A stretch of DNA of 64,000 nt from Theobroma cacao (lineage: Eukaryota > Streptophyta > Magnoliopsida > Malvales > Malvaceae): the NCBI RefSeq assembly GCF_000208745.1, contig NC_030857.1:5902746-5966745 (forward strand), read 5' to 3'. Made by a program: the position numbers and the translations under genes. Shown here in pieces: positions 3,838 to 52,400 of the stretch. How positions within the stretch are numbered: position 1 is the first letter of the stretch; the number at the start of each line of letters is the position of its first letter. The notes under the pieces were generated by a model, which did not search any database, was not told the origin of the DNA, and saw nothing but the letters and a program-made list of their open reading frames with translations.

Positions 3838-4000
3838 GCCTTCACCCAAGCTTCGTTCATTTTCTCAGAGGAACTCAAATCCCAAAAAAAAAGGGTATAG
3901 AGTGAAAAAGAAGTAGAAAAGAAAAGGAAAAAAAGAGTGAGAGAAAAGAAAAGAGGTTTTTGCTTTCTTTCCTCCTTCTCTTTTCAAGTAACGCTCCATT

Positions 4001-7000
4001 ATGGCGGCTTCGGTCGACAATCGACAATTCAGGCGCCTTGAACCGGCTTTGAACGGTGTTTTTAAGCCCTTGAAGCCCGGTCCAACCCCAACCCACCGCC
4101 CTGTGAAACATGTTTTCGTGGACCAAGATTATGACTCTTCCAGCGAAGATGAAGAGAATGAGGCAAACCATTACAAAGACATGATCATCAAATCCAACAG
4201 GGAGCTTGAACAGTCCATCTTGGATCCTAGAGACGAAGCAACCGCTGATAACTGGATCGAGCGTAACCCTTCCATGGTCCGTCTCACAGGGAAACACCCT
4301 TTCAACTCTGAAGCCCCCTTGAACCGTCTCATGCACCACGGCTTTATCACCCCTGTTCCTCTTCACTACGTCCGTAACCATGGTCCAGTCCCTAAAGCTT
4401 CATGGGACGACTGGACTGTCGAAGTGACCGGTTTGGTTAAAAGGCCGATGAAGTTAACCATGGACCAGCTTGTCAACGAGTTTCAAAGCCGTGAGTTCCC
4501 GGTTACCCTCGTTTGCGCTGGAAACAGACGTAAAGAACAAAACATGATTAAACAAACGATTGGCTTCAACTGGGGCGCTGCCGGAGTTTCCACTTCGGTG
4601 TGGAGAGGTGTACCATTGTGTGACGTGCTCAAGCGATGTGGGATCTTTAGTAAGAGACATGGGGCCCTCAATGTGTGTTTTGAAGGGGCTGAGGATTTGC
4701 CAGGTGGCGGTGGTTCCAAGTATGGAACTAGCATAAAGAAGGAGTTTGCTATGGACCCGTCTCGGGATATTATCTTAGCTTACATGCAAAACGGTGAGTG
4801 TTTAGCTCCTGATCATGGCTTCCCTGTTCGGATGATCATTCCAGGGTTTATTGGTGGGAGAATGGTGAAATGGTTGAAGAGAATTATCGTTACCACCCCA
4901 GAATCTGAGAATTATTATCACTATAAAGATAATAGAGTGCTTCCTTCTCATGTTGACGCAGAGCTAGCCAACGCTGAAGGTACATAGAAAAAAAGGAAGA
5001 AGTTTTACATTTTCTATTAATAGAGCAGTAAAATTACCTTGCATGGGAAAATGCTGATAATGAAACATGTGATGTAATGTTCGCAGCTTGGTGGTATAAG
5101 CCAGAATACATCATCAATGAGTTGAACATCAACTCGGTGATAACGACACCTTGTCAGGAAGAGATCTTGCCAATCAACTCATGGACGACTCAGAGGCCAT
5201 ACAATATGAGGGGCTATGCATATTCCGGTGAGTTAACAGAGATTTGTTTTTCAAATTTTCTCGCTTTTTTTAGGCTTTGTTTTCAAAGGGAATCTTTTGG
5301 TCTTTGTCTCCAATTGGAATCATCCGTACAAAAGACCTCGACATGGTTTGCGTTAGCTTAGGTCCATGCACCACTACAAAACTGGACAAGACTTAAGGTT
5401 GTCCTCTAATAGATGCCCCTTGCCTATTTTTTTAATTCATCCGATCGATGGGGAACCTTTTGTCGTAAGTACTGTAGATTTTGGTGCACATGAAAAACCT
5501 TGATCATCATTTTTTTTTCCATAAAATGCTACTTTTGTTTGTTGGCTTGACTTACATCAAATCCTTTGGAATTTTTTTTAATTTGGCTTTTGGCCGTCAT
5601 ATTGATAGGAACATGGGACAGATACAATGTGTTTTCTTTTTTTTGGGCTTATCATTTGGTGAGAATAGCTGCTGGTTTCAGTGCCAAATCTCAAGAACCC
5701 CGTAAAACTTTGAAGAGCCAATCTTTCTAAAGAGAAATGATTTCTTTGCAAATGGCAATTTCTGTTCTGACATTACCGACAAAGACTAAAATTTATTTTA
5801 AGTTTAATGGAAGAGAAATCAAAGACGTCAGGGAAAATGTAAAATGGCAAAGTCGTTTGGTTGAAAACTTGTGTGCTGGAGAGTGCAAGTTGTGTTTTCC
5901 CGTTGTGGGAAGAGTCGTGGAAATGAAAGTAATCTCCTACATTAACGTGCTTTGTTTTTCCTGGGGTGAAATTGACAACAGGTGGAGGGAAGAAGGTGAC
6001 ACGTGTTGAAGTGACAATGGACGGTGGTGAAACGTGGCAAGTGTGCACGCTGGACCACCCTGAGAAACCCAACAAGTATGGCAAATTCTGGTGCTGGTGC
6101 TTCTGGTCGCTGGAGGTGGAGGTGCTCGATCTGCTTGGAGCCAAGGAGATAGCGGTTCGAGCCTGGGATGAGACCCTCAACACCCAGCCCGAGAAGCTCA
6201 TTTGGAATGTCATGGTAAGAACTTTTTTATGGCTTTTTTTATATATGTTTTTTTTTAAGGATAAATACCGAGTATATTCTGTAGTAGTAGTAGTAGGGAA
6301 GTAGCTATCACATCAATCTTGATCATCCAGTGCAGTTCTGACACGTGTCAACAAAGGGTCGAAAGTGGCTTGTAGGACACTTGCGGCCCATTGGGGATAG
6401 CCAGCTAATGTTAGGTTAGTTGGCTGGAGCCATAAGTCCCTACTAGCCCCTGCATGGAGGAGGCTATGGCGTGTGGTGGGATTGTGTGCCTTCATATCCA
6501 CCCCATGGGGTTACTTCTAAGGCCAAAAAAAAGACGAAAAACAATTTAAAGTTTAACTAAAAATCAAAAACAAACAAAGAGCCAGATACTCTTTTATAGT
6601 GTCTGATTCTAATTTTGCATAAAAAATATTTAATTTTTTACAAAATTAAGAGCTTATTTGATTTAATTTTTTAAATTTAAGAGTTATTATAAAATTTTAT
6701 AAAAATAATAACTTTTAAAATTAAATTAAAATTATTTGATAAAATTTTTATAAATTTTTTAGAAATTATAATTTTATTAAATTATTATAAAAAATATTTT
6801 TTTTGAGAAGGTAATATTATAATTATTTTTAACAGATTGAGATATTTTTAAAATAAAAATAAAAATTTTCTTATATTTTTAAAAGAAGAGAAAAAAAAAT
6901 TCTTTATAGGAGTTTTTCTTAAATTTTTTTTTAAAAATTTTATTTTTTAAAAAAAATTAATTTTTTTAAAAACTTCTCAAAATTTAAATTTAGTCTTATT

Positions 7001-8465
7001 TTTACTTTTAAGAAGTAAATAAGATGAAAAAAAATCATGCTAAACAAGTACTAAGAATGCATAGTTATTTTTTAAGGGAAAAATAAATGGATGAGCTCTA
7101 ATGGATTTAATGAATGGTTTCATAATGTAACAGGGAATGATGAACAACTGCTGGTTCCGTGTAAAAACAAACATATGCAAGCCACACAAAGGAGAAATCG
7201 GCATTGTTTTCGAGCACCCAACGTTGCCAGGCAACCAATCCGGCGGATGGATGGCAAAGGAACGACACCTCGAAAAATCGGCCGATGCAAACCCAAGTCT
7301 GAAGAAGAGTGTCTCATCTCCTTTCATGAACACTGCCTCCAAAACGTTTTCGATGTCCGAGGTCAATAAACACAACTCCGCTGATTCTGCTTGGATCGTC
7401 GTCCACGGTCACGTTTACGATTGCACTCGGTTCCTCAAGGATCACCCTGGTGGCACCGACAGTATTCTGATCAACGCTGGAACCGATTGCACCGAAGAAT
7501 TTGACGCAATTCACTCCGACAAAGCCAAGAAAATGCTAGAAGATTATCGGATCGGTGAGATGATCACGACGGGTTATGCTTCGGACTCGTCTACGTCATC
7601 GCCTAATAACTCCGTGCATGGGGCATCGAACTTGAGCTTTTTAGCTCCTATTAAAGAAGTTGCGCCAACAAGACCTGTAGCGCTGGTTCCACGTGAGAAA
7701 ATCCCATGCAAACTCGTCGAAAAAACATCAATCTCTCACGATGTTCGTTTGTTCAGATTTGCACTGCCATCGGAAGATCAAGTTCTAGGATTACCCGTTG
7801 GGAAGCACATATTTCTGTGTGCTACTATCGATGATAAGCTTTGCATGAGAGCCTACACCCCAACTAGCACCATTGATGAAGTGGGCCACTTTGATCTAGT
7901 GGTCAAGGTTTATTTCAAAGGGGTGCACCCGAAATTCCCTAACGGAGGGCTCATGTCACAACATTTGGACTCTCTGCCACTAGGGTCATTTCTAGACGTG
8001 AAGGGTCCTTTGGGTCACATTGAATATACGTGCCGTGGCAATTTCATGGTTCATGGCAAACCCAAGTTTGCCAAGAAGCTGGCAATGTTGGCTGGTGGGA
8101 CAGGTATCACGCCAATTTATCAAGTCATTCAAGCTATCTTGAAGGACCCCGAGGACGAGACAGAGATGTATGTGGTGTACGCGAACCGAACAGAGGACGA
8201 TATTTTGCTGAAAGAGGAGCTGGATGGTTGGGCTAAGAAGCATGATAGGTTGAAGGTGTGGTACGTGGTGCAAGAATCTATCAGGGAAGGATGGCAATAT
8301 AGCTTGGGATTCATCACGGAGAGTATTCTGAGGGAGCACATCCCGGAGGGGTCCAACGACACTCTTGCCTTGGCTTGTGGGCCGCCGCCAATGATTCAGT
8401 TTGCCGTGCAACCTAATTTGGAGAAGATGAACTATGACGTCAAGGATTCTTTGTTGGTTTTTTAA
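4001..8465 (+). CDS. NADH nitrate reductase, four exons
   Basis: Reduces nitrate to nitrite with NADH in the cytosol, the first step of nitrate assimilation. Exons read as 4001-4979, 5087-5227, 5982-6214 and 7134-8465. All three introns are GT-AG and the joined frame is open for 894 codons, within the usual plant length of about 900. Domains in order: an acidic N-terminus (about 41-56); a molybdopterin domain with the Mo-ligand Cys172 in [10 protein letters not shown]; a dimerisation domain; hinge 1 with KSVSSP, whose Ser512 matches the known 14-3-3/phosphorylation site; cytochrome b5 with heme ligands His555 (HPGG) and His578; an FAD domain with RAYTPTS at about 690; and an NADH domain with GGTGITP at about 772 and Cys866 in CGPPPM. 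The protein ends in the family-typical SLLVF. Nothing looks broken. Intron 3 (919 bp) carries an AT-rich insertion. Confidence 0.97.
6640..7065. repeat. AT-rich MITE-like block in nitrate reductase intron 3
   Basis: About 400 bp of nearly pure A/T sits inside the third intron, unlike introns 1 and 2. The left edge (GAGCTTATTTG) and the reverse complement of the right edge (AGTACTTGTTTAGC) resemble the short ends of hAT-type MITEs. The interior is full of A-run/T-run pairs that could fold back. No clean target duplication was found, so the call is tentative. Confidence 0.35.
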
Positions 8466-19555: not shown

Positions 19556-19767
19556 AGTAGTGTGTGAGAAGGAATATATTGACCTTGGACCAATAATTTC
19601 ACATTCCCCTTATCCTAAATTTCCCGTAATTATTAAAAATAGTGAAGTAATAATAGCAAAATAACTGAATGCATTAAACAAAAATATGCAAAATTGATGC
19701 TAGGGAAAACAACAAATTATTTAAGGCTTAAGATAACTTATGATTAATTAATGGTTTGACTCTCGAT

Positions 19768-23938: not shown

Positions 23939-23984
23939 GAAGGGAGCGAGGCAAAGGTAAGTTGAATGGTAAAATTTAAGCTCC

Positions 23985-24458
23985 ATGGCTCAACCGGGTT
24001 CTTTGTCTGCAGAAACTGAGACACTGAGCCATGTCCTGGGTCTGGTGGAGGCATTCAGAGCATTTGATGCAGACAACGATCGAGCAATCAATGCTGCGGA
24101 GCTGGGTGGAATCCTGGGTTCGCTTGGTTACAACGCTAGTGAACAAGATGTAACGGCAATGATGCAACAAGGAGACACTAACAAGGATGGATTGCTGAGC
24201 ATCGAAGAGTTCCTGGAGATGAACACGAAGGACATGGAACTCGGGGACCTTGCAAGTTTTCTCAGGAGCGCTTTCCAGGCTTTTGATGTTGATGGGGAAG
24301 AGGCTGTGACAGCGACGGAGTTATATCAAATCCTGGGGAATCTTGGAGTTGAGTTGTCCCTGGAGGAATGCCAGGGGGTTATTGCTTCCATGGATGCAGA
24401 TGGCGATGGAGCTGTTAGCTTTGAGGACTTCAAACTAATAGTTAATTCCCTCCTCTAG
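23985..24458 (+). CDS. Calmodulin-like EF-hand protein (CML), intronless
   Basis: 157 residues with four EF-hand-type loops: 28-39 (DADNDRAINAAE), 64-75 (DTNKDGLLSIEE), 101-112 (DVDGEEAVTATE) and 137-148 (DADGDGAVSFED). It presumably acts as a cytosolic or nuclear Ca2+ sensor that relays to target proteins. Loop 2 is fully canonical. Loop 1 has Arg in place of the usual Gly at position 6. Loop 3 has Glu at positions 5 and 6. Loop 4 has Asp instead of Glu at position 12, which often favours Mg2+ or weakens Ca2+ binding. So perhaps only loop 2 is a strong Ca2+ site. A single exon is normal for plant CMLs. The start is supported by an ATGG context and by homology beginning within a few residues. 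The exact CML number cannot be given. Confidence 0.92.
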   Translation: MAQPGSLSAETETLSHVLGLVEAFRAFDADNDRAINAAELGGILGSLGYNASEQDVTAMMQQGDTNKDGLLSIEEFLEMNTKDMELGDLASFLRSAFQAFDVDGEEAVTATELYQILGNLGVELSLEECQGVIASMDADGDGAVSFEDFKLIVNSLL

Positions 24459-29000: not shown

Positions 29001-30840
29001 AATAATATTAAAATTTAATGAGAATAAAATATTTTTATAATTTAAAATATTACAATTTTAGACTTATAAATGTTTTTTTTCTTCTCATTTTTTTTCTCTT
29101 TTTTCATATTCTTTTCTCTTTCATTCTCTCTCTAACCTGCACTCATCATCGGAGATGGCGACGGCTACGACAGTTTCACGACCGAATATGGTCAGAAAGC
29201 ATCGATCTAGCCCTTTTCAATAAGATTGAATCGAGAAATAGCCAGATCTGGCACTCCACGACTACATTTGGCTATGGAAAGCATCGGATCTGGTGCTTCT
29301 CGACTAGATCCCACTGTTGGATCTAGCACTTCACGGTCAGATCTAGTAGCGAGAAGCGTCGATCTGACGTCTTAGTGGCCAGTTTCGGTCACATGATACG
29401 TCAGATCGACGTCTTATTACACCGATCACTTTTTCGGTAGTCGGTCCATGGAGAAGAAAAGAAAGAAAAAAAATATTTTATAAATTTTAAAATATTAATA
29501 TTAATATGATTAAAATATTAAAATTTTATTTATTTATTAAATTATTAATATATTAAATTTTTAATGAGAATATATAAAAAGTTAATAATATTTTATCATA
29601 ATAGTATTAAAAAATAAATAATAAAATTATATTAAAATAATTAATATTTAAATTAAACTATACATTATTAATATTTAAAAAATAAAATAAAAATAATTAA
29701 TCATATACATAATAAAAGATATTTTTGTTTTTTATTTTTTTTTTTATTTCAAAGTTATTGTTATCAATTAAACGTTGTAATAAGTCATAATAATTATTTT
29801 TACTCTACTCTATTCGTCATACCAAATTACGTAGTATATATGTTATTCTATTCTCACCTCATTCTATTTCAACGTAATAGTTACTCTATTTTATTTTTGT
29901 CTATTTCGTAATTCAAACGGGCTACTGGCGTCTTGCCTAACACTATTAGTGTATTGCATTTAATTTTTTCAAGTTCAATTTATCTAATTATCATTAATTA
30001 AAATTTTAAAAAATTTATTTTAAATTTGTGCATAAAATAATTATCAAATATATATTTGTTAAAATTCAATTTAATCAAATACTTAAAATAGTTCAATTTA
30101 AAATTGAAAAACTTTGATTAAAGAAAATCAAACGAAACAATATTTATGAATGAGTAGCACATTTTGAATATAATAGAAATTAGTATTATTATTAATTATA
30201 TGCAAATATATAAAATAATCAGTATTGTAAGGTGATTTATATAAAAAAATTGTACTTAACGAATTATCCTTTCTTGTAATGTCCCGTTAATTAATCAGAC
30301 TTTGTTTTTTGGCCTAATTCAAAGGAATTTAATCACTTAATTACGAATTTAATACAGGTTCCTTTACTACCAGCACACATTATCTCTGTAAGCCATGGCG
30401 TAGAAGGGGAATCAGCAGCGAGTAGCTACGAGTTCTCTATTAGGCAACAAGTCAAAAAACGAACGGTCCAAGCTTCTCCATCAAGCGACTGCCCGAGATT
30501 CGATCTTGTTCTCCTATCCTTAGGGCCCAACGGCCACGTGGCGTCTCTGTATCCTAATGACCCGGTTTTGCAAGAAGAGTCTCAGTGGGTTGCTTGTGTC
30601 TCCAAAGACGGTACGATAGAGAGCGTGACCCTCACTCTCCCGGTGATCAACGCGGCAGCCAACGTGGCGATCGTGGCCGCGGGGATGGATCTGGCCCGTC
30701 CTTTCATGGATGTAATGGTGAGTCGTAAGCCCATTGGATCACATCCAGCTCAAATGGTCTCGCCCCAAGATGGAAAGCTCGTTTGGTTTGTGGATGCTAG
30801 CGCTGCTTCGTTGTTCCTACGTGGCAATGAACATCGTTAA
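26064..30840 (+). CDS. 6-phosphogluconolactonase-like protein, three exons
   Basis: The family hydrolyses 6-phosphogluconolactone in the oxidative pentose phosphate pathway. Exons read as 26,064-26,221, 26,324-26,459 and 30,358-30,840, all GT-AG, giving 258 residues, a normal length for cytosolic plant enzymes. No transit peptide is seen. Recognisable blocks are LVLSGGD (41-47), WPKWHVFWAEENVVAKLHPD, FDLVLLSLGPNGHVASLYPN, LTLPVINAAANVAIVAAG and KLVWFVDA. Several family-conserved positions differ. Relatives have GGS (here GGD), an ADER-type block (here AEEN, so the Arg is lost) and DGH (here NGH, His kept). Activity may be reduced or changed. There are no stops or frameshifts, so it is not an evident pseudogene. 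Intron 2 is 3.9 kb because of a large inverted-repeat insertion. Confidence 0.9.
27655..29917. mobile_element. Long inverted-repeat (foldback) element in intron 2
   Basis: Two arms, about 27,811-28,827 and 28,983-29,917, are diverged reverse complements along their whole length. Outer ends: TTTGATTTGCGGTATAAAT pairs with the complement of 29,901-29,919. Inner ends: ATTCCTTCAATTATGGAAT pairs with ATTCCATAATTGGAGGAAT. The arms share AT-rich blocks and a GC-richer 'GGATCTGG' block. The 155-bp loop contains GGTAC...AATAGCTAAG, which resembles the sequence just outside the left arm (27,655-27,690). This suggests two copies of one MITE family arranged head to head. No coding capacity was found. Confidence 0.75.
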
Positions 30841-33405: not shown

Positions 33406-34537
33406 ATGTTGGGTTTACGGGGTTCAGTTGGAGTACTCTCCGATGTCAGTCATCAGCTTCTCCAAAACATAACGGTGAGTTTCATTCCTTAATTCTCGTT
33501 AGCCAAAATGTCTTCATTAAGAATTTGCTGATCATATTCCTACGCGTTAAGGCCTCTTGCCAAGGTTTGTGATTATATCAAGATTACTATTTATATTCAA
33601 GATTTTAATGTCATACATTTCTGGGTTAATGAGACTGTCTGTTGCTCTTGTCTTTTATTTATATTAACTGTTTAATTATGGGAGGATTTTGATGTTCTTT
33701 TTGTCGTTGTTCTATTAACATGTTGAACTCTAGAAAACAAATTTTCTTTTAACTAAGATGTAAATTGGATAACGGTTAAGGCTTTTATCGCAGTAAGCAG
33801 TGTTATTGTTTAATTGGATTTCTATTTTCTTTCCCCTCAAGTTCAGCTGCAGCTAACCCAGATAGGATCATATGCTTATCTGCACTTTTGTTTTGGTCAA
33901 GGTTTATATGCTTACCTGATAGGATCAGTTGAGCTTGAGAGTTGAAATCAGGCATTTTTTTCTTTGATTTGCCTTCAAAAAATGAATATTTTTTTTTAAT
34001 GAATTCCCCGGTACCAACTGGAACCTATTATTGTTGACATGTTGTTTTCTGCAGTTCCATGGAATAAAAGTGCAATACATTCGTGTGGGAGGTGCTGAAA
34101 TTCCAGACCACAAGCGCCTTGCAGTTTCTCTTCAGAGCATCTTTGGAATTGGCCGTACTAGAGCTCGCCAGATCTTAAGCGAGCTCAATATAGATAACAA
34201 ACTCACTAATGAATTAACTGGAAAAGAACTCATGTCTCTCCGTGAGCATGTCTCTTCCACATATGTCATTGGAGAAGATTTGGTATAAACTTGTTTCTCT
34301 ACTCAACTTCCTTGCGTTAGGAACTTACCTTCTCTAACATTATTCTTTTCTTGGGTGATTTAGAGGCGATGTGTCAATGCAGACATGACCAGATTGAAGG
34401 TTATTCAGTGCTATAAAGGGATCAGGCATGAGGATAAGTTGCCTTGCAGAGGACAGCACACAAAAACCAATGCCCGGACTGCAAAGAAGGGATTTAATGC
34501 TGTTGTAGAGAGACATAAAGCCTCTCCTAAGTCCTAA
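33406..34537 (+). CDS. Ribosomal protein S13, mitochondrial-type
   Basis: Small-subunit protein at the top of the head; S13 contacts the 23S bridge and P-site tRNA. Exons read as 33,406-33,474, 34,055-34,282 and 34,364-34,537, both introns phase 0, giving 156 residues. Exon 1 encodes [20 protein letters not shown], a short amphipathic stretch with no acidic residue before Asp13, typical of a mitochondrial presequence. The S13 body starts at [13 protein letters not shown], with [10 protein letters not shown] and the C-terminal [14 protein letters not shown] signature. The start at 33,406 is preferred because the frame from 33,312 hits a stop before the splice site. It is much closer to the plastid-type S13 at 41.5 kb than a mitochondrion-derived S13 would be. 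The family history (plastid S13 duplicate retargeted to mitochondria in rosids) supports the assignment, but targeting is inferred. Confidence 0.9.
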
Positions 34538-36517
34538 CTAAGGCTTGTTTCTTGCTTTTATTATTTCATGCTGCAGAGAACGAATCCAACGGCATTAAAT
34601 CATGTTCTGGTATATGTAGTTGATCATTAATTTCTGGTGCTGCCGAGATGGTTGCCATTTATTTTTCAAGAAAATTGTAAAAGCTGGTCAAAATTGCCGA
34701 GGATGGTATGTAGTTGCTTTGGTCTCTGTGGAAGCAGCTCTGTTTGCCCTAGCGGTTTGAATTGTAATAATGTTTCAAAAAGTTCATTATTTAAATGATG
34801 TTTTATGCTACTTGAACCTCTTCATTTTTCTTGAAGATACCATATCTAACTCACATCAAGCACCATGGAGTCTGGAACTGCATATGGTAGTTAGGACTGA
34901 CCACCTAAAATGGGGAGAAACTCCCATTTTGCATTCTGCTGGTCAGTGGCCTTGTAACTAACAGATCTCAGCTTAAGAATCAATTCTCCCTGGCTTTCAA
35001 AAGGATGCTTAGGTATTTCGTCAAGCATGCTTAAGCATTTATGAACCAAGACCAGCATATGCGTAGATTATTATGATTTATAACTCGAAGTCAGCTAACC
35101 AATTGTTCGTGCTGGTTGCTGAAGAATCAGCTAAATGGTCAAAATGAAAGAATGATGAAATCTCCAACATCGATTAAGGATGGCAATGGGTATCCAATTC
35201 AATTATATAGGGTTAAGATATTTTATAATTAGGTTTGGGACGGGTTTAGCTAGTAATTTCACTACTCGTGTCAAGTTGATACCACCCCTTGCTACTTGGT
35301 ACTTGAACCCAATTATGTTTTTTTTTTTTATTTCATGTAGTTAAAGATAAATTTATATTGTTAATTGAATTAATTTATGAAATTATCATTATTAATTAAC
35401 TTATAATGTCTTTTATAAATATACTTTATATATTGTGTTAATTTATAAAAAATATAATTACTATTATATATATACATTTAGTATACTTACTTTAAATATA
35501 AATATATTTACTTTTTATTTTGAATTAGCATTACAAAAATTATAACATATAAAATTATTAATTATAATATATATACTTTTATTTACATAAACTTATAATA
35601 TATATACCTAAAAAGAAGTTGTGAGATTAAAATACTTATAGAACCTACCTATTTTTTTTTATTTCATGTAACTAAGGACAAACTCATATTGTTAATTAAA
35701 TTAATTCATGAAACTATGATTATTAATTAACTTGTAATATCTTTTAATATATATATTCTATATATTGTGTTAATTTATAAGAAATATAATTACTACTATA
35801 TATATATATATATATATTACTTTTAGNTGTGTTGACATTCCAAAAATTATAATTTATAAAATTATTAATTATAATATATATACTTTTATTTATATAAACT
35901 TATAGTATATATACTTGTGAGATTAGAATAGTTTTGGAACTTAGTTTTTTTTTTTAATTTTATGTAATTAAGAACAAACTCAATTAGTTAATTAAACTTG
36001 TAATATTGTTGTCTTGTTGAAACTTGTAATGTTGTTTAAGATATTATTTGAATATTTTTATTTATTTTTTTAAGTTGATATTTGAAATATTGTTTTTGAT
36101 TATTTAAATTTAAATTTGATTATTTGTGTGTTTTTATAAATTTAATTTTTAGTGAAATATATGAAATATGGGTGAGAAATATTATTGTATATGGATATAG
36201 GTATGGATTTGAGTTTGGATAATTGAATACTCATGAAGAGTATTTTAATAATTTTTTACATAATTGAGTTTTTAAATGAATTCGGATAATTATTGTGTAG
36301 TGGATATGTATTAAAATTTGGATTAAAATATTAAATTTTAAAAATATTCAAATGGTTGTAATATTCGGATAACTCATTTATTAATCGAATTTAAATTCAG
36401 ATACTTCAAAATTAATGAATACTCTACTTATTGACATTATGGATGGGCTTTCGCGTTTGTAGCTAAGTGACATAGCGAATCAAGGAAAATAAGATGTTAG
36501 GCAGTAAGTAATTGGAT
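34538..36517. other. Spacer between the mitochondrial S13 gene and the hAT element
   Basis: S13 3' UTR to about 34,700, then non-coding DNA. From 35,175 a repeat-rich AT block begins; see the next entry. Confidence 0.5.
35175..36440. repeat. AT-rich element remnant with three tandem units
   Basis: Three diverged units begin near 35,305, 35,640 and 35,940 (marker ATTTCATGTA at 35,329 and 35,661; ATTTTATGTA near 35,957), with spacings of about 332 and 295 bp. The edges TAAGGATGGCAATGGGTA and (complement) CATAATGTCAATAAGTA are weakly similar, so the whole may be one non-autonomous DNA element of about 1.27 kb. One N lies at 35,827 inside unit two, beside an (AT)n tract. Confidence 0.5.
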
Positions 36518-36525
36518 ATCTTGGG

Positions 36526-39500
36526 TAGACTTGTCAATATGGGTCGAGTCGGCCCAGCTCGGCCCAGGCCCTTGTGGGATGAAAAAATATGGGTCGGGCT
36601 AGCCCATATTTTATATGAGTTGTAAAATTCCCAACCCAGCCCACCCTTTGCTAGCCCATGGGTTGGGCTGGGCCAACCCTTTTTTAATTTTTTTTATTTT
36701 TTTATCAATAAAATTATACAATAATTTAATACATAAATTGAATAATAAAAACATATTACAAATAAATAAATTACACTAAACATAAATAAGCAAATACACT
36801 ACATCAAATATAAATAAAATTTCAATCTTTAACATAAATACACAAACTACAATCCCATTAGCATGTAACATAAGTATATAATCAAATATTTATAAATTTT
36901 AAAACTAATTTATATTCTTCTCAATCTTCATCCTCAATCAAAACATTTGAGTCTTATTTGGACAGCAATGATGTCTCCAACTCTGAATCATCATCTAATA
37001 TTCATAATCATAAAAAAAAGAGAATATAGTGAGTTTTAATTTTAATTAAAATTATTAATTTAACAAGTAAAAATTAAAGACATTAAAATATATAAAATAA
37101 ATAATACCATCAGCAGCTAAAGAAAAGCCATGTAACCAATTTTTTGTGCAAACAAGCATTTCAACATTTTCATGGTGGAGAGAACTTCTAAACTTGGTAA
37201 GAACATGACCACCAATACTAAAAGCAGACTCTGATGCTACCGTAGTAATCGAAATGCTCAATACATCTCGTGCCATAACAGAAAGATCAGGAAAGCGCTT
37301 AGCATTATCCTTCCAATAATTAAGCACATTCAAGTCTTCAAACACTTCATAATCAAGCTTTGCCTCACCTAAATAAACATCAAACTCAAACTTTCTAGCA
37401 ATAGAAATTGTTTCATTTTGAAACATTTTGAACTCCTACAATTTTTAAATACATAGACAAAAAAAATAATTATCAAAACATAAATAAAGTAACATAAATT
37501 CTCATATAATAAGATGAAGGAAAGACACAAAACTTACACTAAAGATCTTTAATCCCTTGGGTTTAGTTCCTCCTCCGGCTTGCTTAGGCAAATTACTCGT
37601 TGAGTGAGAAAATGTACCTGATGCACCAGTGTTGCTTGCATATTGTTCAAAGAGCTCGTACAACTTTGTCTTCACATTTTCTAACTTTTCATGACAAGTA
37701 GAAGCATCAATCTTAGAATAGCAAAATCTTAAGAAATCAAGCTTCATCCTTGGGTCAAGAATAGCTCCAAATGTAAGCACTACACTGTAATCTTTCCAAT
37801 ACTTTTCAAATTTCATTTTCATCCTTTGAGACATATCCTTGATCACCTCATCTTCATTATGCAAATTCTCATTTAAAATAGATTAAATTTTCCAAACTTG
37901 CATGAAATACAAGTTGAAAGTTGGATAAGATGAACCGGATATCAAGTTTGTGGTCTCATAAAAGGGCTCCAAAAATTCACAAATTATAATCGCTCTCCCC
38001 CATTCCTTATCAGATGGATTATATTTATAAGTTCTATCAACAAACTAGAGGCTAGCAAAAGCTTTTTGATATTTGATTGCACTATCAAGCATCAAATATG
38101 TTGAATTCCATCTAGTTGACACATTTAAACACAACCCAACACTTGCATCAATACCAACACGTTGAACACATTTTTGAAATTTTTTCATCCTCCCGTTCGA
38201 TGCCTTTACATATTTCACGCTCTCCCTAATTTTAAGTAATGCTTCATTGATTGCTTTCAAGCCCTCTTGAACAATAAGATTTAAGATATGAGCACAACAA
38301 TGCACATGAAAAAATTCACCATCACAAATCAAGCTACTTTGCAAATGAAGATGGCTTTTCAAGATACCTTGCATGTTATCATTAGTAGAAGCATTATCTA
38401 AAGTAAGAGAGAAAACTTTTCTATCTATTCCCCATTCTTTCAAACAATTAAATATAGTAGCAACTAATTCAACTCCAGCATGTGGAGGAGGCATATGACA
38501 AAAGTTAAGTAACTTGCTACATAACTTCCAATTTTCATTGACAAAGTGAGCAGTCAAACAAATATAACCCTCAGAAATGATGCTGTCCACACATCAGAAG
38601 TTAAGCAAATTCTATTAGGTACCTTGGCCATGGCTTGTTTAAGTTTCTCTTTCTCTCTCAAATGAATTCTCTGGACATCAGATACAGCAGTGTTTCTAGA
38701 AGGCATCACCACATCTGGATTTACATACTTAGCCCAAGCTCTAATCTTATCATATTCAACAAAAGCATGAGGCAAGTAATGCTTAATTATGGCTTCAGCA
38801 AGCATGTCACGTGAAATCCTAGGATCAAACTTTCTAACCTTTACTTTCCCTTCATAATCCATTAGCATTTGATGTGGATTGAAATAGGAAATGAATTTAC
38901 AAGTGTCAATGTGACGACGCAAATGTGAAGTGCCATAATTAGAGCCACCAGGTTTAGGGCCAACTTTATACTCTGTTTTACAACCATTACAAGTTGCCCT
39001 TTCTACTCTATCTTGCTTTTTGCCTATTTTAGTGAAATAATTCCAAACATTTGAAGTTTCTTTTTTTGCCCTCTTATTCAATTGTTCAGATTCAGATATA
39101 TGAGATTGAGAGGGAATTTCATCCTCATTCAAAATGTTCACGTCATCATCCATATTTATATAGTTTTCAACTGATTGATCCATTACCGTTACCTTCAAAT
39201 AACATAAACATGAATAAAAAAATATTAAAAATTTATAAAAACTTATTGATTCAGTTCAAAAGTTAGATTATAGGCAAGGGTGAATTCATTTTCTAACATT
39301 TCACAAATTCAAAATTCACAAAAATTAAACCACTTCTAACATTTTTAATTTTCTCTACAAAATTACTATTAAAAGTATTCAAAGATTTACCTGTACTGCC
39401 GAAGATTGATCGAGTCTCGAGTGGGTCAAGTAGGAGAAAACTCAGAGCACTAGGCAAGACCGCAAAAGTGGTGGTGTGGTAAAACTGTACTCCAAGAACA

Positions 39501-41155
39501 ATACATTCAGCATGCATCACAAAATGGTAAGCCATAGTGTTTAATATATGCAACTTTTGAATCTATATTTACATTTATTTATTTAAATTTGAGGATTTGA
39601 AAATTGGGAATTATTGTCCTTAAATAGCACATGTGCATTTGTTAAGGCTACCCTTATGTATTTCTTCATTTTTTTTACTTCTTTTTTAAATAATACCATC
39701 ACCCTTGTTAGGTAGTGTATCTACTGGTGGTGAGTATTGTCAATGGATAAAAGTATTTTATTCTCCAACTTATAAGATTACCAAGTATATTAATTAGTAG
39801 AATAAATAGCTACAAAAGTTCTTAATTTGGAGAGGTGAAAGGAAAGGGACATCAAATTTTGTTGCCTTGAGGCACTATCATTCATTATCTTATATTTTCT
39901 CTCTTTTAGGTTCTTTAGTCGTCCCATGTATAATCAAAATTAGATTTCATATTTTCATGTTCCCTTCAAAATATAGAATACCATATGCTCTTTTTGATTT
40001 TAAAATAAAATGTATATCTTAAGAATTTAACACAAATTTGGTCTAATAAATTACAAAGTGTTTCTTCAATTTGCAATAGACATATGAGGGTCCTCCATGT
40101 GCCACTATAATGAAAGATAATACCAAACAAATTTTCAAACAAAATGCAATGTTGTCATCAAAGTAAATACAGTGACAAAGACACCAGTGGCCAAGGGAGC
40201 TTATAAACAAAAAATTAATCATCGAAAAGTCCAAGCATATATAGCCCAAATAACAAATCTTTTAGTAAGAATTTCACAGGCAATACAATTTCTGTCTTCA
40301 GTTAGATAAATCATTTGGAAAAAGTTAATACCAGATGCTGTCATATTTTGAGAAGTTAATACTAGCGATGGGGTGTCAATTTATACCTTATACCAGAGGT
40401 GATGTGTCGATGCCGATAGCCAAATGCCCATGGCCGGATGCCGAATAGGGAGTGAGAACTGAGAGATGAAACCGAGAAGTTGAAAAGCTTTATAGTCAGG
40501 AAGCAAATTGAGACCGCCAGATGGCTCGGGCGGATTGGAAATCTGGGGATTAGGCGATTGTCGATTATCGATTGGCTCCAACCTTAGGTGAGACAGCGAG
40601 ATAAGTCCATAAGGACCATAACCCAGACCAGAACAACTGTAGTGCTACAAAAGAACAGATGGCTCAAGCGGCGATGGGGGATTTGGGGATCTGGGGGTTA
40701 GGCGATTGCCTATTGCTGATTGCCGATTGCCTCCAAGCTTAGGCGAGAGTCGCAGGACGGCGAGAGAAGTCAAAACCCATACCATAACAAGTAAACAACA
40801 GCAGAAACAACTCCCACTAACAGATCACAGATGGCTCGTACGGTAGGGGGATTTGGGGATTTTGGTATTTGGGGTTAGCTGGTTAGGACTTTGGTGGCGG
40901 TTAGGGTTCTTAGGGAGTTAGGGTCTTGGGCTCTTGGCTTGGGCTTCTTAGTCTTGGATCTTTCTTGCCTAGCACTATAAAATTTTTTTGGCCTTCCGAG
41001 CTGGCCCGCCCCAACCCGAGTCAACCCCCTAATCAAACGGGCTAGCCCATTTAGGCACGGTTATAATATGGGTCTCAAATACTCAAACCCAACCCACCCC
41101 ATATTTAATAAAAAAAGTACCGACCCATCGGGCCTAGCCCATATTGACACATCTA
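36526..41155 (-). mobile_element. hAT transposon (Ac/Tam3-type), degenerate but full length
   Basis: A 4,630-bp element flanked by a perfect 8-bp target duplication ATCTTGGG (36,518-36,525 and 41,156-41,163). Ends are TAGACTTGTCAATATGGG and, as complement of the right end, TAGATGTGTCAATATGGG. Subterminal GGCC/GGGC-rich repeats lie at both ends. It encodes a broken BED-finger/hAT transposase on minus. Three copies of an AGATGGCTC...GGGGAT...TTAGGCGATT-like block lie at about 40,518, 40,659 and 40,828, probably subterminal binding repeats. It sits between the two S13 genes, 300 bp upstream of the second. Confidence 0.95.
36954..39198 (-). pseudogene. hAT transposase pseudogene
   Basis: The reading begins MDQSVENYINMD and contains a BED zinc finger (CNGC then HLRRH). 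The catalytic RNase H-fold core has Asp in SDVW and in LDNAS, and the hAT C-terminal dimerisation domain has ESAFSIGG and RSSL. Defects: a frame change at about 38,575 (consistent with loss of one base), a TAG at 38,045-38,047 and a TAA at 37,883-37,885. Two GT-AG introns in the 3' part still look intact (37,537-37,436 and 37,107-36,995), and the last short exon ends LLSK at 36,954. The protein would not be made, so the element could move only with a helper. Confidence 0.9.
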
Positions 41156-41159
41156 ATCT

Positions 41160-41306
41160 TGGGCCATTTCAATGCACAAATAGTAACGAATTCCAACAGA
41201 ACAAAATATAAATTGGGTTGATATCACCTTTGGAGGCCTCAAGTTGGGCCGATACATTGCTACCAGTATTACCGCATCCAATTGGGCTACACCACATTTA
41301 GGCCCA
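41160..41306 (+). promoter_or_regulatory. Four site II motifs upstream of plastid S13
   Basis: TGGGCC at 41,160 (overlapping the hAT target duplication) and 41,245, TGGGCT at 41,283, and the complement GGCCCA at 41,301. All lie within the 300 bp between the hAT end and the ATG. The density is typical of promoters for organellar ribosomal proteins. The hAT insertion abuts but does not remove them. Confidence 0.65.
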
Positions 41307-41462
41307 TTCCGACGTGGCTATTATTAAGTAGCGAGTGTTGTTTTCCATCTTTACTCGAGCGAGTGTCTTTCTCATTCCAATTTAGGAAAGAGGATAGAAT
41401 TACTAGCAACCTCTTGAGCTCTTCCTTCACTCTGCTTGGTTACCGAGAAAATCGATAGGAAT

Positions 41463-42471
41463 ATGGCGCAAACCCTGGCAATGCCCGTGGCACCCTCTCT
41501 CTCCTTCATATGCAACAAAACGAGCTCTCTTTCTCTCTCTAACTCTGTTTCCCTTCCACTTTCGAACCCTCCGAAGGTAAAAATCCCTTTTAATTTCTTG
41601 TCATTTCTGGATTTTCCTCTCTCTTTTTTTTTTTTGCCAATTTTGTTTCATTTCATTGCTTAATCCTGTTTCCTGGAATCAAAGAAGAGAAAATTTTAAG
41701 CTGGAATTTCTTGATTTCAGTGCAATTTTGTTCATATTGGTGTCCTACATTTTCAATAATGACAAACAGAAATTAATTAGTACTATTAGGCTTAATTGAT
41801 ATAGGGTTTAGGCAAAGCGAGTTTCAACATATTTGGAAGTTTCAAATTCAGAACTTCAGTATGCTCGAGGATAAAAAGAGAGAATTTTCATATTCAAATT
41901 TAGAATTCTAAAGCTCTTTCCTTTTCCCCCTTTGTTTAAATTTTAGTTTATTAAGTTGGAAAGCGAATTCTTATTGTTTTTTTTTAAATCAATTAGTATC
42001 GTAGTCTAAGCATCGAATGCGCTCGTGTTGGAGGAGTGGAAATTCCAAACAACAAGAGAGTGGAATTCTCTCTTCAGTACATCCACGGAATCGGTCGTTC
42101 GAGGGCTCGTAAAATTCTCTGCGATCTCAAAATGGAGAACAAAATCACCAAAGATTTGTCTGAGGAAGAACTCATCACAATTCGTGATGAAGTCTCCAAG
42201 TATATGATTGAAGGCGACCTGGTAATTGCCAATTCTCCTTCTGGTAACTCAGCACACGCATTTCTAAGCGATTTGATGATTTTTCTTTCTTGTGGTGTTG
42301 CAGAGGCGGTTCAATGCTCTTAATATAAGGCGACTGAAGGAGATTCAGTGTTACAGAGGGGTGCGCCATATTCAGGGCTTGCCTTGCAGAGGACAGCGCA
42401 CCAAAAACAACACTCGGACTTTGAAGGGTAAGAGGGTTACTGTGGCTGGAAAGAAGAAAGCCCCTCGTTAA
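41463..42471 (+). CDS. Ribosomal protein S13, chloroplast-type
   Basis: Plastid 30S subunit protein. Exons read as 41,463-41,576, 41,997-42,221 and 42,304-42,471, GT-AG and phase 0, giving 168 residues. Exon 1 is a Ser-rich, acid-free transit peptide ([15 protein letters not shown] start; [11 protein letters not shown]). The mature part starts near [14 protein letters not shown], with [10 protein letters not shown], the signature [22 protein letters not shown] and a basic KKKAPR tail. Length and sequence match land-plant nucleus-encoded plastid S13. Acceptor at 41,996 is chosen because it alone keeps phase with the end of exon 1. Both intron positions match those of the mitochondrial-type S13 gene upstream. 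Confidence 0.95.
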
Positions 42472-47362: not shown

Positions 47363-49406
47363 TCAAGCTTTCCTGTTCTTCCTTCGGGTCATGATCATGA
47401 CCTTTTCACCCTTTGAAGTAGCAGATGTGTGGGTTCGTCTGCCAACAATGGTTGGCCTCGACCGGGTGAAACCATCCCGTGGAGGAGAAAAAACAACGGG
47501 CAGGTAATCATTTGTATGACACGGAAAGCTTGACCTCTCAAATTGTTCCTTCAAAGCGCCTTTTCCCTGTAGAATTTCACCCAAAACAAAAAGCAAAAGG
47601 GCATCAATCAATTACTAGAAGAGCTTGCAGGACTCAAGACTGAATAAGAAATTCTGACATTAACCAACGCCGTTTAAGAGAATAGAAGGGGAAAACAAAA
47701 AGAGGCAGACCCTTTTGCTTAAAAATGGGCATATGTTACCTGCAGCTTCGCGACAGAAATTTCACAGATTTTGCTCCTAGTATCTCCATACCTCCATTCT
47801 CGGTGGTTAAAGGCACTAGAAAACCTTGATGCAGCATCAGGACTAGTAAAATTCACAAATGCAAATCCCAGATTCAAATGGAACCTGAACAATTATGTCA
47901 GCATTACTCGTTTGCGTCAATTCACTACAATAATCTTTAGACTCAACAAATTTAAAGAACAGAAAAAGAGATGAGACGAGGCAATGATTAAAATTAAAAT
48001 ATTACCCAAAGTCCATGGGCAGATAGAGAAAATCATATGCTGATTTGCAGAAATTAGACACTGGCTGAGCTTTGCTATTTTCAATCTGACAGAAACGATC
48101 TAGCATGCGCTGCAAGTCACTCCTTCTGTTCATTTATCAACAAGAGAATGTATCAATAACAACCAAAGAACCCTGAGCATGTAGAAGTCAAAAAGAGACA
48201 TGTATCAATTTAGTTACATCGATGGACTTTACTACCATGTGATGCATATATGCATGTTAATCGATGTAGGATAAATATGCCATGCATGTTGGAAAAGCAT
48301 ACATGAATGAACATTTAAGAGATCTCCAGACATACATAACTTCCGTACAGCTACAGACTACAGAAGTGACAAAGAAAACCTGAAGAACGAATGGCAAAAC
48401 TGACTCCTCTTCTTCCAGCTTTTACAGACCGTTCCCATATCAAAGGTCGCAAAAGAAACTTAAAACAGACAGGGAGGGAGAGAGAAAAGGAAGTACTGTT
48501 ACTTGACTACCAACGGCAGGAAAAAACCATAACACAGAGAAACTCAAAGATGGGGAAAGAGATGGGTCATTGAGAGATCCATGGCTAAAATAAACAGTAA
48601 AACATACCCATTTTGGCCAATATAACAGCCCAGAAACCTAAATGATTACGGGCTCATGGCAGCTGAACCATGTATGGTAAGATTTAAAAGGAAAATAGAA
48701 AACCAGCATGAGCATGAACAAAAAGACAAAGCGAAAGAAAATGCACGAGATAGAGAAACTACTTGAAGTGATTAGGAACGTTTTTGATCATGATAGAAGT
48801 CTTTCCATCAAATTTCATCTGTTCCTCAGCGGGTACAAGAGGACATAAAGGAGAACCACCACCTTGAACATTAGAACTGGCTCCGATCTTCTCATCATCT
48901 GCTTTTCTAGGGACCCAAACCGGGCTATGCATGGGATACTCACTCCGAGGCTTCAAGCTAGGAGGAACAGACCCACATTTACCTTTCTTCTTATTTCCAA
49001 CGATCCTCTCAGACCCATAGTTCATACCATCATATGGAATAGAATTTGGGCTATTGAAAACTTTAATCCGGGGATATGGCTGCTTCTCTGAGTTATATAG
49101 GTTCAAACACTCTTCCTTATTTTCCCAGCACCAGGAAGAATAATATCCAAAGCTTGGACGGGAACAGAAGTCAGGCAACACAACGGGTAAAAATACCGAT
49201 TGCAATACTGGTACCTGAGGCTGAGGGAGATGTAAGGGAGCTTCATTTTGGTTCCTTTCAAAGTGAAACTGATGAGGCAGGTAAATTTTATCTTGCGGAT
49301 AATGGGGCTTCGCAATCGGTTGCATGGATTGAGGCTCGTAGCTTAAAGCTGATGGGTTTAGTGGTTTAGAATTTGAGGTTTTCACTGGAGAAGAGGAAGC
49401 AGACAT
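47363..49406 (-). CDS. MEI2/TEL-type C-terminal RRM protein, four exons
   Basis: RNA-binding protein with a single MEI2-type RRM. Exons on minus: 49,406-48,763, 48,125-48,006, 47,884-47,740 and 47,566-47,363. All are GT-AG and the frame stays open for 370 residues. The N-terminal half (exon 1) is Pro/Ser-rich and low in known domains. The RRM starts at about 200 with RNP2-like [11 protein letters not shown], continues [13 protein letters not shown], and has RNP1-like [14 protein letters not shown]. It ends [20 protein letters not shown], then a basic tail (RRKNRKA). It resembles plant 'MEI2 C-terminal RRM only-like' and terminal-ear1-like proteins rather than full three-RRM AML proteins, because no N-terminal RRMs are seen. 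An alternative start at 49,481 would add 25 mostly hydrophobic residues; the downstream Met (MSASSSPVK) is preferred. Confidence 0.87.
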
Positions 49407-52400
49407 TTTGGGAGCCCTGGAGCAGAAGAGGAGGAGAAAAAAACACCCCAGGATCCAACTCCCTTTCAAGTTGAGGAACAAATAACACTTTTAGGTAAAT
49501 AGATAAGTTTGAAATATACAGAAAAAGTCCACAAGGACGGTGTAGGAAAGTTTGGAAGGAAGAAAGCATTACTTGTACATGAGACTGACGAGACATTTAT
49601 TCAGGCTTTCGCATAGCAAGGCAGGAAGGGAAGTTTCACCATTTTGGCTAAGGGAATCCCTGTAATGATGAAGACTGGAATGGGAGACTACTCGGTTATG
49701 TCCATCCATTTAATGCTTGGCCCGGCTGTCCCCATTACATGACAAATACATTGTGAGCTTTGGCGGCGTGATAGAGAGAGAAACATACAGATGAGAGTCA
49801 GAGGGCAAGCTTGATTGATTCTCTATGCAATCTGTTCTCTGGGGTATATTACCATTTTTTAATTCCAGATACGTACTTAACTTTATGCACCGTTCCTCAA
49901 TTGAATTGCTGTTCATAGTATTTAAAACTGTAAAACAATGACAAAAAAGAAATACTACCAAGTAAAATAAACAGATGAGGTTGAGCAAATTTTTTCTAAA
50001 TCTTGTGCTACTAAGTTTCTTAGTTCTTGATTCGGTGCACTCATGAAGTTATACACGGGGAAAAGGTTGTAATCTATGGATTGCTTTTTCTCGAAGCTTA
50101 AAAGATTTTCCTGAAAAAGGCAATCATTAAATATTGAACCATTGAAAGTTGACTTCTAGGCCAGGTTTCTGAATGGCAAAAGACCATACCCGTTTGAGAT
50201 ATTAAAGTTTATACTAAATCCATGAACAAAAACTTTTAGGAGCTTTTTTTTGGGTCAAGATCATTTGCCTTGTACAGTATTTACACTATTTGGTAGTAGT
50301 ATTTCCCTTACTGTCTTTTTCTTTTGTGAATGTTGTTTTTAAATTTTAACTATTTTTATAACTAGAAGATGGAGAGACTGCATGGTTTGTCATTTCATGT
50401 CATTCTTAATATAGCTGCCAAATTTTTTAGTTTTATTTCTTTTTCAACAATTCGTATCCTTTTATACATGTCAAATTGTGAATTAATAACATATGTTAGC
50501 TCAAACTTAAAAAATTATTATTAATAAAGTACATTTCAAGAGAGTTTTGATTACCAAAAGTTGAGTTATTTTGTTTGACAAAGTACAATAAATTTGAAAA
50601 GATAGTGCTAAAATATTTAGAGGTGACAACTAGTGTTACCATGTAATCGGTGACTTTATTATTAAATTTTTTTATATAATTAAAAATTTTTATAAATTAT
50701 TTAAATATATTTTATTATATTTGATGAAATTTTTATATTTTTATTTTAAATTAAATAATTTTTTTATAATTAATAATTAAGTAATATGATGATAATATTA
50801 TATTATATTAACATATTACGTTATTATTTATTATAAAATATTAATATATTATATAATATAAAAAATTAATATTTTAATTAATTAATAATTAATTATTAAA
50901 TTATACTTAATTAAAAATAAAAATATAATAAAAATATATTTTTTTATTTTCCTTAATAGGTTGATCATTAGCATTGCAGTACATCCACAGAGGGTAGGGT
51001 TTCTTTTCCCAAGGGTAGGGTGCGCACAAGATTTATACATAGCCAAAGGTTAACTCCACCCCTCTACGTCATCCATTTGCAACATTCGACCACTTTATTG
51101 CCTTCGGCAAAATTTTTTAATATTTAAAAATTTTGCTATATATTATATTAATTTTTTATTAAAACAAATCTTTTTTTTTTAAATTCACTAAAATATTATG
51201 TTGGATCCTTAGCTAAAAAATTGTACTGTTTGAAAAACAAGTAAGTGAAAATAAATTAAAAAGTTAAAAGCACAAGTGATACAAGTGAAATTCACCCTTA
51301 AGTTTATTATAATAGAAATTTATATTCTAAAAAATTTACCAATAATATCAAGTGTTTTTTAAGCAGAATTAAAAATTTAATATCAAGAGTATCTGAGAAG
51401 GATCCTCTATGACCTAATAAGTGATGAAGCTAGATCACTCCAACCAACCATTAGCCATGCTCTGGTCATAAAGTCTCAAATTGACTTGAAATTTGGTCTT
51501 TGGAACTCAATGGCACATGACTATCAACTTATTAAAACAAATCCTATTCAAATAAGATTTGTCAAATTTATGATCTCTTGAAAGCATTTAGAAATTAAAA
51601 AGAAAATTAATTATTCCAAATAAAAACCAAAATTTGAACCATCCTAATCAGATCAAGACTGCTTAATGGCATTAATTACGCACTAATCATTCAATCTTAA
51701 AATCATATTTCCCTAATAACTTAAGGACTAAAGAGTATTCGAGTGAGTTTGTCAAAAATCAAAATCCTATTAAAAGCATAGAAAGAGATGAAGTTCTTTA
51801 ACTCGAAATTCAATTAATTCCCCATTTAAACATTCTAAATAAACCAAAAAATATGTAACATTGGCCTAATTTTTCAGTCATTCATTGAATGTATGCCAAT
51901 TCTTTGCAATTTTTCACTGCAACTATTAAATGGCATTTATTGTAGAAAGACAAGAAAAATGATTAACAAGTTGTTGGTAATGTTGTAATTAGGGTAAGTT
52001 ATTCAAATACTTTTAAATTTTGATAAAATTACATTATAGTGGAGTGTGAAATTTTGATCAAAATTTAAAATTATAATATTTTGTCCTAAAAGTTATGATG
52101 AGTTCAAAATTACTTTGAAACATGGACTTTGCTTATAAACAAAAGAAAGTCATTATCCAATTCGTACCATTTCAAGGTGACGTCTGCTTCTTTTTACACG
52201 TGTCTCACCCTAACCCAGCAACAAGCAATCTTGTCTCACCGTCTGGTCAGTGAAGCATATGATAGATAGAAAAGCGGTAGATGAAAAGGCATGAGCAGCA
52301 TTAAATGGAAAGAGAATTTTTCCTTTTTTTGGGGGCAGGGGGGGTGTGGAGTTCTCGGCTTTTAGAGTTTCGAGGTTGGTTTGAGAATCCCCAAAGTGGG

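What the first reader, a model, noticed from the sequence alone, without database searches (positions are those of the whole stretch)
33406..42471. Mitochondrial-type and plastid-type RPS13 genes are adjacent tandem paralogues
Two S13 genes lie in the same orientation. One has an Arg-containing amphipathic presequence, the other a Ser-rich plastid transit peptide. Both introns fall at the same places and in the same phase: between presequence and body, and just before the RR of the C-terminal third. It is established that in rosids the mitochondrial S13 was replaced by a retargeted copy of the nuclear gene for plastid S13. Here the two copies are still neighbours. The gap is 6.9 kb, of which 4.63 kb is a hAT element and about 1.27 kb another repeat, so the underlying distance is roughly 1 kb. 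I infer a local tandem duplication followed by a presequence change in exon 1 as the mechanism of the gene replacement.
Basis: partly seen in the sequence, partly recalled or inferred. Interest (0 to 1): 0.88.

Follow-up and report, generated by a model that had tools for sequence, protein, structure and literature searches.

The report
Neighbouring plastid and mitochondrial S13 genes
In the cacao tree a chloroplast ribosomal protein gene and its descendant, which has the features of the mitochondrial version, still sit side by side, and many related plants seem to keep the two linked, so this known change of destination probably began as a simple local gene duplication.

Summary
The window is Theobroma cacao. 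Two S13 genes lie in tandem on the + strand: a mitochondrial type (numit, 33406-34537, 156 aa) and a plastid type (nucp, 41463-42471, 168 aa). Both have two phase-0 introns at matching positions. The 6,925-bp gap holds a 4,630-bp hAT element with identical 8-bp target duplications. That rosid mitochondrial S13 derives from plastid S13 is already published; the linkage I did not see in print (10 paper searches, subscription papers mostly missing). It is not peculiar to cacao: in 19 of 28 other rosid species with comparable rows, numit and nucp proteins lie on a contig of identical length, in 9 orders of fabids and malvids. A Cephalotus gene model fuses the two, numit first; locus tags are consecutive in Juglans regia and Diplodiscus. 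In 9 species they lie on different contigs. The 44 numit rows tested form one clade (100/100). Local duplication in a rosid ancestor, then a new exon 1, is the best mechanism. Open: targeting in cacao, its mitochondrial rps13, the outgroup locus. A poppy relative (Macleaya) has an extra S13 on its nucp scaffold: a possible parallel or older event.

The parts
33406..34537 (+). numit RPS13 (mitochondrial-type S13), 3 exons: 33406-33474, 34055-34282, 34364-34537; 156 aa
   Evidence: Splice-consistent model; 100% match to T. cacao protein P0001; Pfam Ribosomal_S13 E 7.9e-29; in the 44-row numit clade
33406..33474 (+). exon 1 of numit: 23-aa mitochondrial-type presequence
   Evidence: M[LF]G.R.S start in 27 of 38 numit N-termini cut out; one match only, itself, in the cacao genome; no profile similarity to the nucp N-terminus (hhalign probability 0.2%)
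36526..41155 (-). hAT DNA transposon, 4,630 bp, with 8-bp target-site duplications ATCTTGGG at 36518-36525 and 41156-41163
   Evidence: Inverted ends and duplications; Dimer_Tnp_hAT and BED domains on the - strand
35180..36460 (.). A+T-rich stretch with imperfect direct repeats spaced about 300-330 nt (35.3-36.0 kb); outer limits set by eye
   Evidence: the repeat finder D1-D4; genome copy number not obtained
41463..42471 (+). nucp RPS13 (plastid-type S13), 3 exons: 41463-41576, 41997-42221, 42304-42471; 168 aa
   Evidence: Splice-consistent model; 96% identical to Herrania '30S ribosomal protein S13, chloroplastic' (P0025)
3992..8462 (+). nitrate reductase (NIA) coding region, synteny marker; not all exons modelled
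   Evidence: Oxidored_molyb, Cyt-b5, FAD_binding_6, NAD_binding_1
47722..49490 (-). MEI2 C-terminal-RRM-like gene (MCT1-like), synteny marker; exons not modelled
   Evidence: ORF ending [12 protein letters not shown] and a later stretch GFAFVNFT; named by eye, Pfam gave no match to the first ORF

Best explanation
The two genes are the products of one local (tandem), DNA-level duplication of the nuclear gene for plastid S13 in an ancestor of most rosids. The upstream copy acquired a new exon 1 coding for a mitochondrial presequence, while the intron that separates targeting peptide from body stayed in place. Its product then took over the S13 position of the mitochondrial ribosome. The two have stayed linked in cacao and in many other rosids; a hAT insertion later widened the gap in the cacao lineage. 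Shown here: adjacency in cacao, shared introns, clade membership, linkage in other rosids. Inferred: the order duplication then presequence change, adjacency at the time of origin, and the mitochondrial destination in cacao (from orthologues).
For: Same orientation and two phase-0 introns at matching positions, which speaks against a retroposed copy. The 44 numit rows put into the tree, from 10 rosid orders, form one clade (100/100). Of 28 other rosid species with one row of each kind from comparable assemblies, 19 have numit and nucp on a contig of identical length, among them small scaffolds: Cephalotus 0.26 Mb, Tarenaya 0.68 Mb, Parasponia 1.96 Mb, Momordica 2.35 Mb, Ficus 4.76 Mb (the class of every row in the tally except the fused Cephalotus model was checked with two profiles). 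Cephalotus P0003 is one model made of a numit body followed by a nucp body. Locus tags are consecutive in Juglans regia (F2P56_031107/031108) and Diplodiscus (0155400/0155500), and 9 apart in Ficus. With an assumed chance of 0.2 per species, 19 of 28 has P = 5e-8 (species are not independent, the 0.2 is my guess). Position agrees too: AT1G77750 is numit and AT1G77760 is NIA1; Populus numit is POPTR_002G088400 and Potri.002G088200 is the MCT1 orthologue; cacao has NIA and an MCT1-like gene on either side of the two. The best structure hits are two mitochondrial uS13 chains, matched nearly end to end.
Against: In 9 of 28 species the two lie on different contigs (Reevesia, Hibiscus sabdariffa, Durio, Corchorus, Tripterygium, Manihot, Gastrolobium, Sesbania, Vigna angularis); some are recalled to be old polyploids and the Corchorus numit contig is only 17 kb, but none of this was tested. 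If the 4 species set aside for differing annotation names (all with different contigs) are counted, it is 19 of 32. dS of 1.0 is lower than one might expect for so old a pair, though 117 codons give a wide error. Nucp relationships are unresolved on 106 columns, so the tree does not place the duplication inside the rosids (a clade of all rosid rows is 33 log units worse, AU p 0.12, not rejected).
Confidence: 0.87

Rival explanations
1. The mitochondrial S13 gene arose elsewhere (dispersed duplication) and the two genes came together by chance or by a later move in the cacao lineage.
For: The genes are unlinked in Arabidopsis (numit AT1G77750; nucp At5g14320 is recalled) and on different contigs in 9 of 28 species.
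Against: Linkage in 19 of 28 species over 9 orders, a fused Cephalotus model and consecutive tags in Juglans regia and Diplodiscus would need many independent meetings. Tarenaya, also Brassicales, has both on one 682-kb scaffold, so the Arabidopsis state looks derived.
Confidence: 0.05
2. A recent, cacao-specific tandem duplicate of plastid S13, not the rosid numit gene.
For: Such lineage-specific nucp tandem copies seem to occur: Arachis models P0022, P0027, P0059, P0065 and P0067 contain nucp pieces repeated.
Against: The cacao gene groups with Malvales numit inside the 44-row numit clade, carries the conserved MLGLR.S presequence, and is only 49% identical to its neighbour.
Confidence: 0.02
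3. The duplication is much older than the rosids (early eudicot), kept in rosids and in poppies and lost elsewhere.
For: Macleaya cordata (Papaveraceae) has a second S13 (P0202) on a scaffold of the same length, 107,722 bp, as its nucp (P0128); the tree puts it sister to rosid numit (100/95); it shares numit residues at 6 columns.
Against: By profile it is still plastid type (nucp 199.9 bits, numit 166.2). At 3 of the 6 columns the commonest residue of five bacterial-like rows is the same, so convergence on a mitochondrial ribosome is possible. Holding it with the Macleaya nucp is not rejected (AU p 0.218). Its N-terminus resembles the nucp N-terminus (hhalign probability 41.5%, E 2.7e-4) and not that of numit (0.5%). 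Liu and Adams found no numit in Vitis.
Confidence: 0.12

Closest known systems
numit rps13 of rosids (Adams et al. 2002 and Mollier et al. 2002, seen only as citations; Liu and Adams 2008, PMC2258280: abstract, sections 5 and 13 and passages read)
   Same: Same gene: plastid-derived S13 with the conserved mitochondrial presequence, fast-evolving, not found in Vitis in their search.
   Different: The 2008 main text gives no location: 'adjacent', 'intron', 'linked', 'chromosom' and 'synten' occur 0 times and 'tandem' once, generically; its additional files were not seen. The linkage and the matching introns are what this window adds.
VTI11/VTI14 and VAMP722/VAMP723 of Arabidopsis (PMC4202327, passages read)
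   Same: Tandem duplicates, one of which moved to another compartment.
   Different: Studied as Brassicaceae-level duplicates and between endomembrane compartments; here an organelle-to-organelle switch shared across rosids.
rpl10 in Arabidopsis and Silene, rpl16 in Silene (PMC13308715, passages read)
   Same: Mitochondrial ribosomal genes that are duplications of the plastid counterpart.
   Different: Linkage of the copies is not discussed in the passages read.

Membership tests
rosid numit rps13 | S13 of plastid ancestry, inside the numit clade | tested here: met
   44 numit rows one clade, 100/100; lies among nucp rows when rooted on 3 monocot rows, forks there weak
rosid numit rps13 | conserved numit presequence | tested here: met
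   Alignment of 8 rows; M[LF]G.R.S in 27 of 38 N-termini, cacao among them
rosid numit rps13 | import into mitochondria, not plastids | not testable with these tools
   Known only for orthologues
rosid numit rps13 | native mitochondrial rps13 lost | tested here: inconclusive
   PF00416 finds no further organellar S13 in G000, but COX1 gives no match either, so the mitochondrial genome is probably not in the assembly. Malus keeps both genes (PMC2258280, abstract), so loss is not a strict requirement
tandem duplicate pair | adjacent, same orientation, no other host gene between | tested here: met
   The only ORFs of 100 aa or more between them lie in the hAT element; shorter genes were not sought
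tandem duplicate pair | shared intron positions and phase | tested here: met
tandem duplicate pair | linkage goes back to the duplication | tested here: inconclusive
   19 of 28 species in 9 orders on one contig makes it likely; adjacency was seen only in cacao, Cephalotus (fused model), Juglans regia and Diplodiscus (tags); outgroup locus not tested
hAT transposon | 8-bp target duplication, inverted ends, hAT dimerisation domain | tested here: met

The most novel reading that the evidence does not exclude
The plastid S13 locus is a recurrent source of mitochondrial S13: tandem duplication followed by a presequence change happened not only in rosids but also, separately, in the poppy family (Macleaya P0202 near P0128), with convergence on the same mitoribosomal residues; or else one early-eudicot tandem event underlies both.
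Probability: 0.3. Interest if true: 0.72.

Novelty: new member of a known kind. Interest (0 to 1): 0.52.

Why it matters
It gives a concrete mechanism for a well-known case of organellar gene replacement: a neighbouring copy, an intron between targeting peptide and body, and a new first exon. Two genes that are still linked in many rosids make the junction, the source of exon 1 and the timing testable by plain genome alignment. A possible second case in poppies would give a natural replicate for adaptation of a plastid protein to the mitochondrial ribosome.

Tried and rejected
Rejected: cacao-specific duplicate (tree, presequence). Rejected: retroposed copy (matching introns). Arachis P0022 first looked like a second fused numit+nucp model; its sequence is nucp+nucp, and notebook entry 2 corrects entry 1. 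Six further PF00416 hits at C8:16.54 and 16.55 Mb are by eye two neighbouring genes for cytosolic S18, not organellar S13.

No donor of exon 1 was found: the 101-bp query hits only itself, a DNA-level search that would miss an old donor. Native mitochondrial rps13 could not be tested. The literature searches on Macleaya with rps13 and on Populus gene numbers held no papers. Three Corydalis papers (Papaveraceae) list mitochondrial rps13 in their gene tables (passages); Macleaya is not named in them.

Tally: 34 species had a numit row and a nucp row in the printed lists. Two had no contig for one or both (Glycine max, Rhizophora). Four were set aside because the two names bear different annotation styles: Malus domestica, Glycine soja, Acer saccharum, Rubroshorea; their contigs differ. 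That leaves 28. Searches list only the best 120 of 7988 and 7970 rows. The tally was made by hand from the printed rows. Contig length is that of the longest contig of a 90% cluster. Because adjacency outside cacao rests on three species, I also changed one membership row to inconclusive and the best explanation from 0.88 to 0.87.
Full report
Where it is. The window matches Theobroma cacao (P0001, 100% over 156 aa) and lies at C8:5902746-5966745 of a 324.85-Mb assembly. A search of that assembly with the S13 family gives 9 hits: one in the numit gene, two in the nucp gene, and six in two neighbouring genes near 16.5 Mb whose translation looks by eye like cytosolic S18.

The two genes. Numit: 33406-34537, three exons, 156 aa. 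Nucp: 41463-42471, three exons, 168 aa. All introns are GT..AG and phase 0. Intron 1 separates the targeting peptide from the body (RVGG starts at residue 10 of exon 2 in both), and intron 2 lies just before RR in both. The bodies are 49% identical (64 of 130), dN 0.36 and dS 1.02 (117 codons). Matching introns mean a DNA-level duplication.

The gap. 6,925 bp from stop to start. A hAT element at 36526-41155 (4,630 bp) has inverted ends and identical 8-bp target duplications, and hAT dimerisation and BED domains. Without it and one target copy the gap is 2,287 bp. The A+T-rich stretch that precedes it holds imperfect repeats spaced about 300-330 nt; that it is a dispersed repeat is unproven, so 'about 1 kb' is plausible but not shown.

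What the genes are. Liu and Adams 2008 (PMC2258280; abstract, sections 5 and 13 and passages read) state that rosids have a nuclear gene for mitochondrial S13 derived from the plastid gene, that they found it only in rosids and not in Vitis, and that the Arabidopsis, Gossypium and Glycine products go to mitochondria. My tree of 94 rows and 106 columns puts the cacao gene with Malvales numit inside one clade of 44 numit rows (100/100); forks among the nucp rows are mostly weak. The best hits among solved structures are two mitochondrial uS13 chains, matched over residues 1-154 of the query, presequence included.

Linkage elsewhere. I had three protein searches. For each species with both kinds of protein in the printed rows I compared the contig length given for them. 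Same: Herrania, Diplodiscus, Cephalotus, Ziziphus, Tarenaya, Mangifera, Quillaja, Juglans regia, Juglans microcarpa x regia, Carya, Euphorbia lathyris, E. peplus, Parasponia, Erythroxylum, Mercurialis, Fragaria, Morella, Ficus, Momordica (19). Different: Reevesia, Hibiscus sabdariffa, Durio, Corchorus, Tripterygium, Manihot, Gastrolobium, Sesbania, Vigna angularis (9). Profile scores agree with the class given to each of these rows, the fused Cephalotus model apart. Four more species with differing annotation names, all with different contigs, were set aside; with them it is 19 of 32. Orders were checked for Cephalotus, Quillaja, Tarenaya and Momordica; the others are recalled. The strongest single rows are the Cephalotus model P0003, in which a numit body runs into a nucp body in the order seen in cacao, and consecutive tags in Juglans regia and Diplodiscus. 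Tags are 9 apart in Ficus and 126 apart in Erythroxylum. At an assumed chance of 0.2 per species, 19 of 28 would have P = 5e-8, an optimistic figure because relatives are not independent.

Position. NIA domains lie at 4.0-8.5 kb and an MCT1-like gene, named by eye, at 47.7-49.5 kb. Arabidopsis numit is AT1G77750 (PMC6953067, a table passage) and NIA1 is AT1G77760 (PMC9864231, a legend). Populus numit is POPTR_002G088400 and the Populus MCT1 orthologue is Potri.002G088200 (PMC8935312, a table passage). That neighbouring numbers mean neighbouring genes is recalled. The numit gene therefore seems to sit at one old locus in cacao, Arabidopsis and Populus.

Mechanism. Best supported: local duplication, then a change of exon 1 in the upstream copy while intron 1 and the body stayed. 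Profiles of 38 numit and 40 nucp N-termini (exon 1 plus the start of exon 2) share nothing detectable (hhalign probability 0.2%), and exon 1 has no second DNA copy found in cacao. Since the changed copy is the upstream one, a duplication unit that merely cut off exon 1 is less likely than a full copy changed later; this is inference.

Macleaya. P0202 of Macleaya cordata (Ranunculales) is a second S13 on a scaffold of the same length, 107,722 bp, as nucp P0128. Its N-terminus has 4 K/R and no acidic residue in 33 and resembles the nucp N-terminus (probability 41.5%, E 2.7e-4). The tree puts it beside rosid numit (100/95). Against that, the nucp profile fits it better (199.9 against 166.2 bits), three of the six columns it shares with numit have the same commonest residue in five bacterial-like rows, and joining it to its own nucp is not rejected (AU p 0.218). 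So it may be a parallel case, an older branch or a plain nucp duplicate; targeting is unknown.

Prior art. In the listings and passages that I saw from ten paper searches there is no statement that numit and nucp rps13 are adjacent. The library lacks most subscription papers, and I saw Adams 2002 and Mollier 2002 only as citations, so priority cannot be claimed.

Noticed in passing
P0202 and P0128 (Macleaya cordata, scaffold length 107,722 bp for both): A non-rosid has a second plastid-type S13 with a mitochondrial-looking N-terminus and some numit-like residues, apparently linked to its nucp gene.
   Followed up: partly
P0003 (Cephalotus follicularis): One 273-aa public gene model joins the numit body to the nucp body: probably a mis-joined tandem pair.
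   Followed up: yes
P0022, P0027, P0059, P0065, P0067 (Arachis): Models with repeated nucp S13 pieces: seemingly separate tandem copies of plastid S13 in peanut.
   Followed up: partly
P0146 (Xanthoceras sorbifolium): Model that fuses a PF03092 domain to the N-terminus of numit S13, perhaps the upstream neighbour there.
   Followed up: no
G000:C8:16542144-16555733: Two S13/S18-family genes about 12 kb apart on the - strand, by eye cytosolic ribosomal protein S18.
   Followed up: partly
window 17327-19609, - strand: Retrotransposon remains: an integrase core (rve) domain and, by eye, reverse transcriptase/RNase H-like frames.
   Followed up: no
window 23973-24455 (+) and 30295-30837 (+): EF-hand calmodulin-like gene and a 6-phosphogluconolactonase-family gene between NIA and numit.
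   Followed up: no
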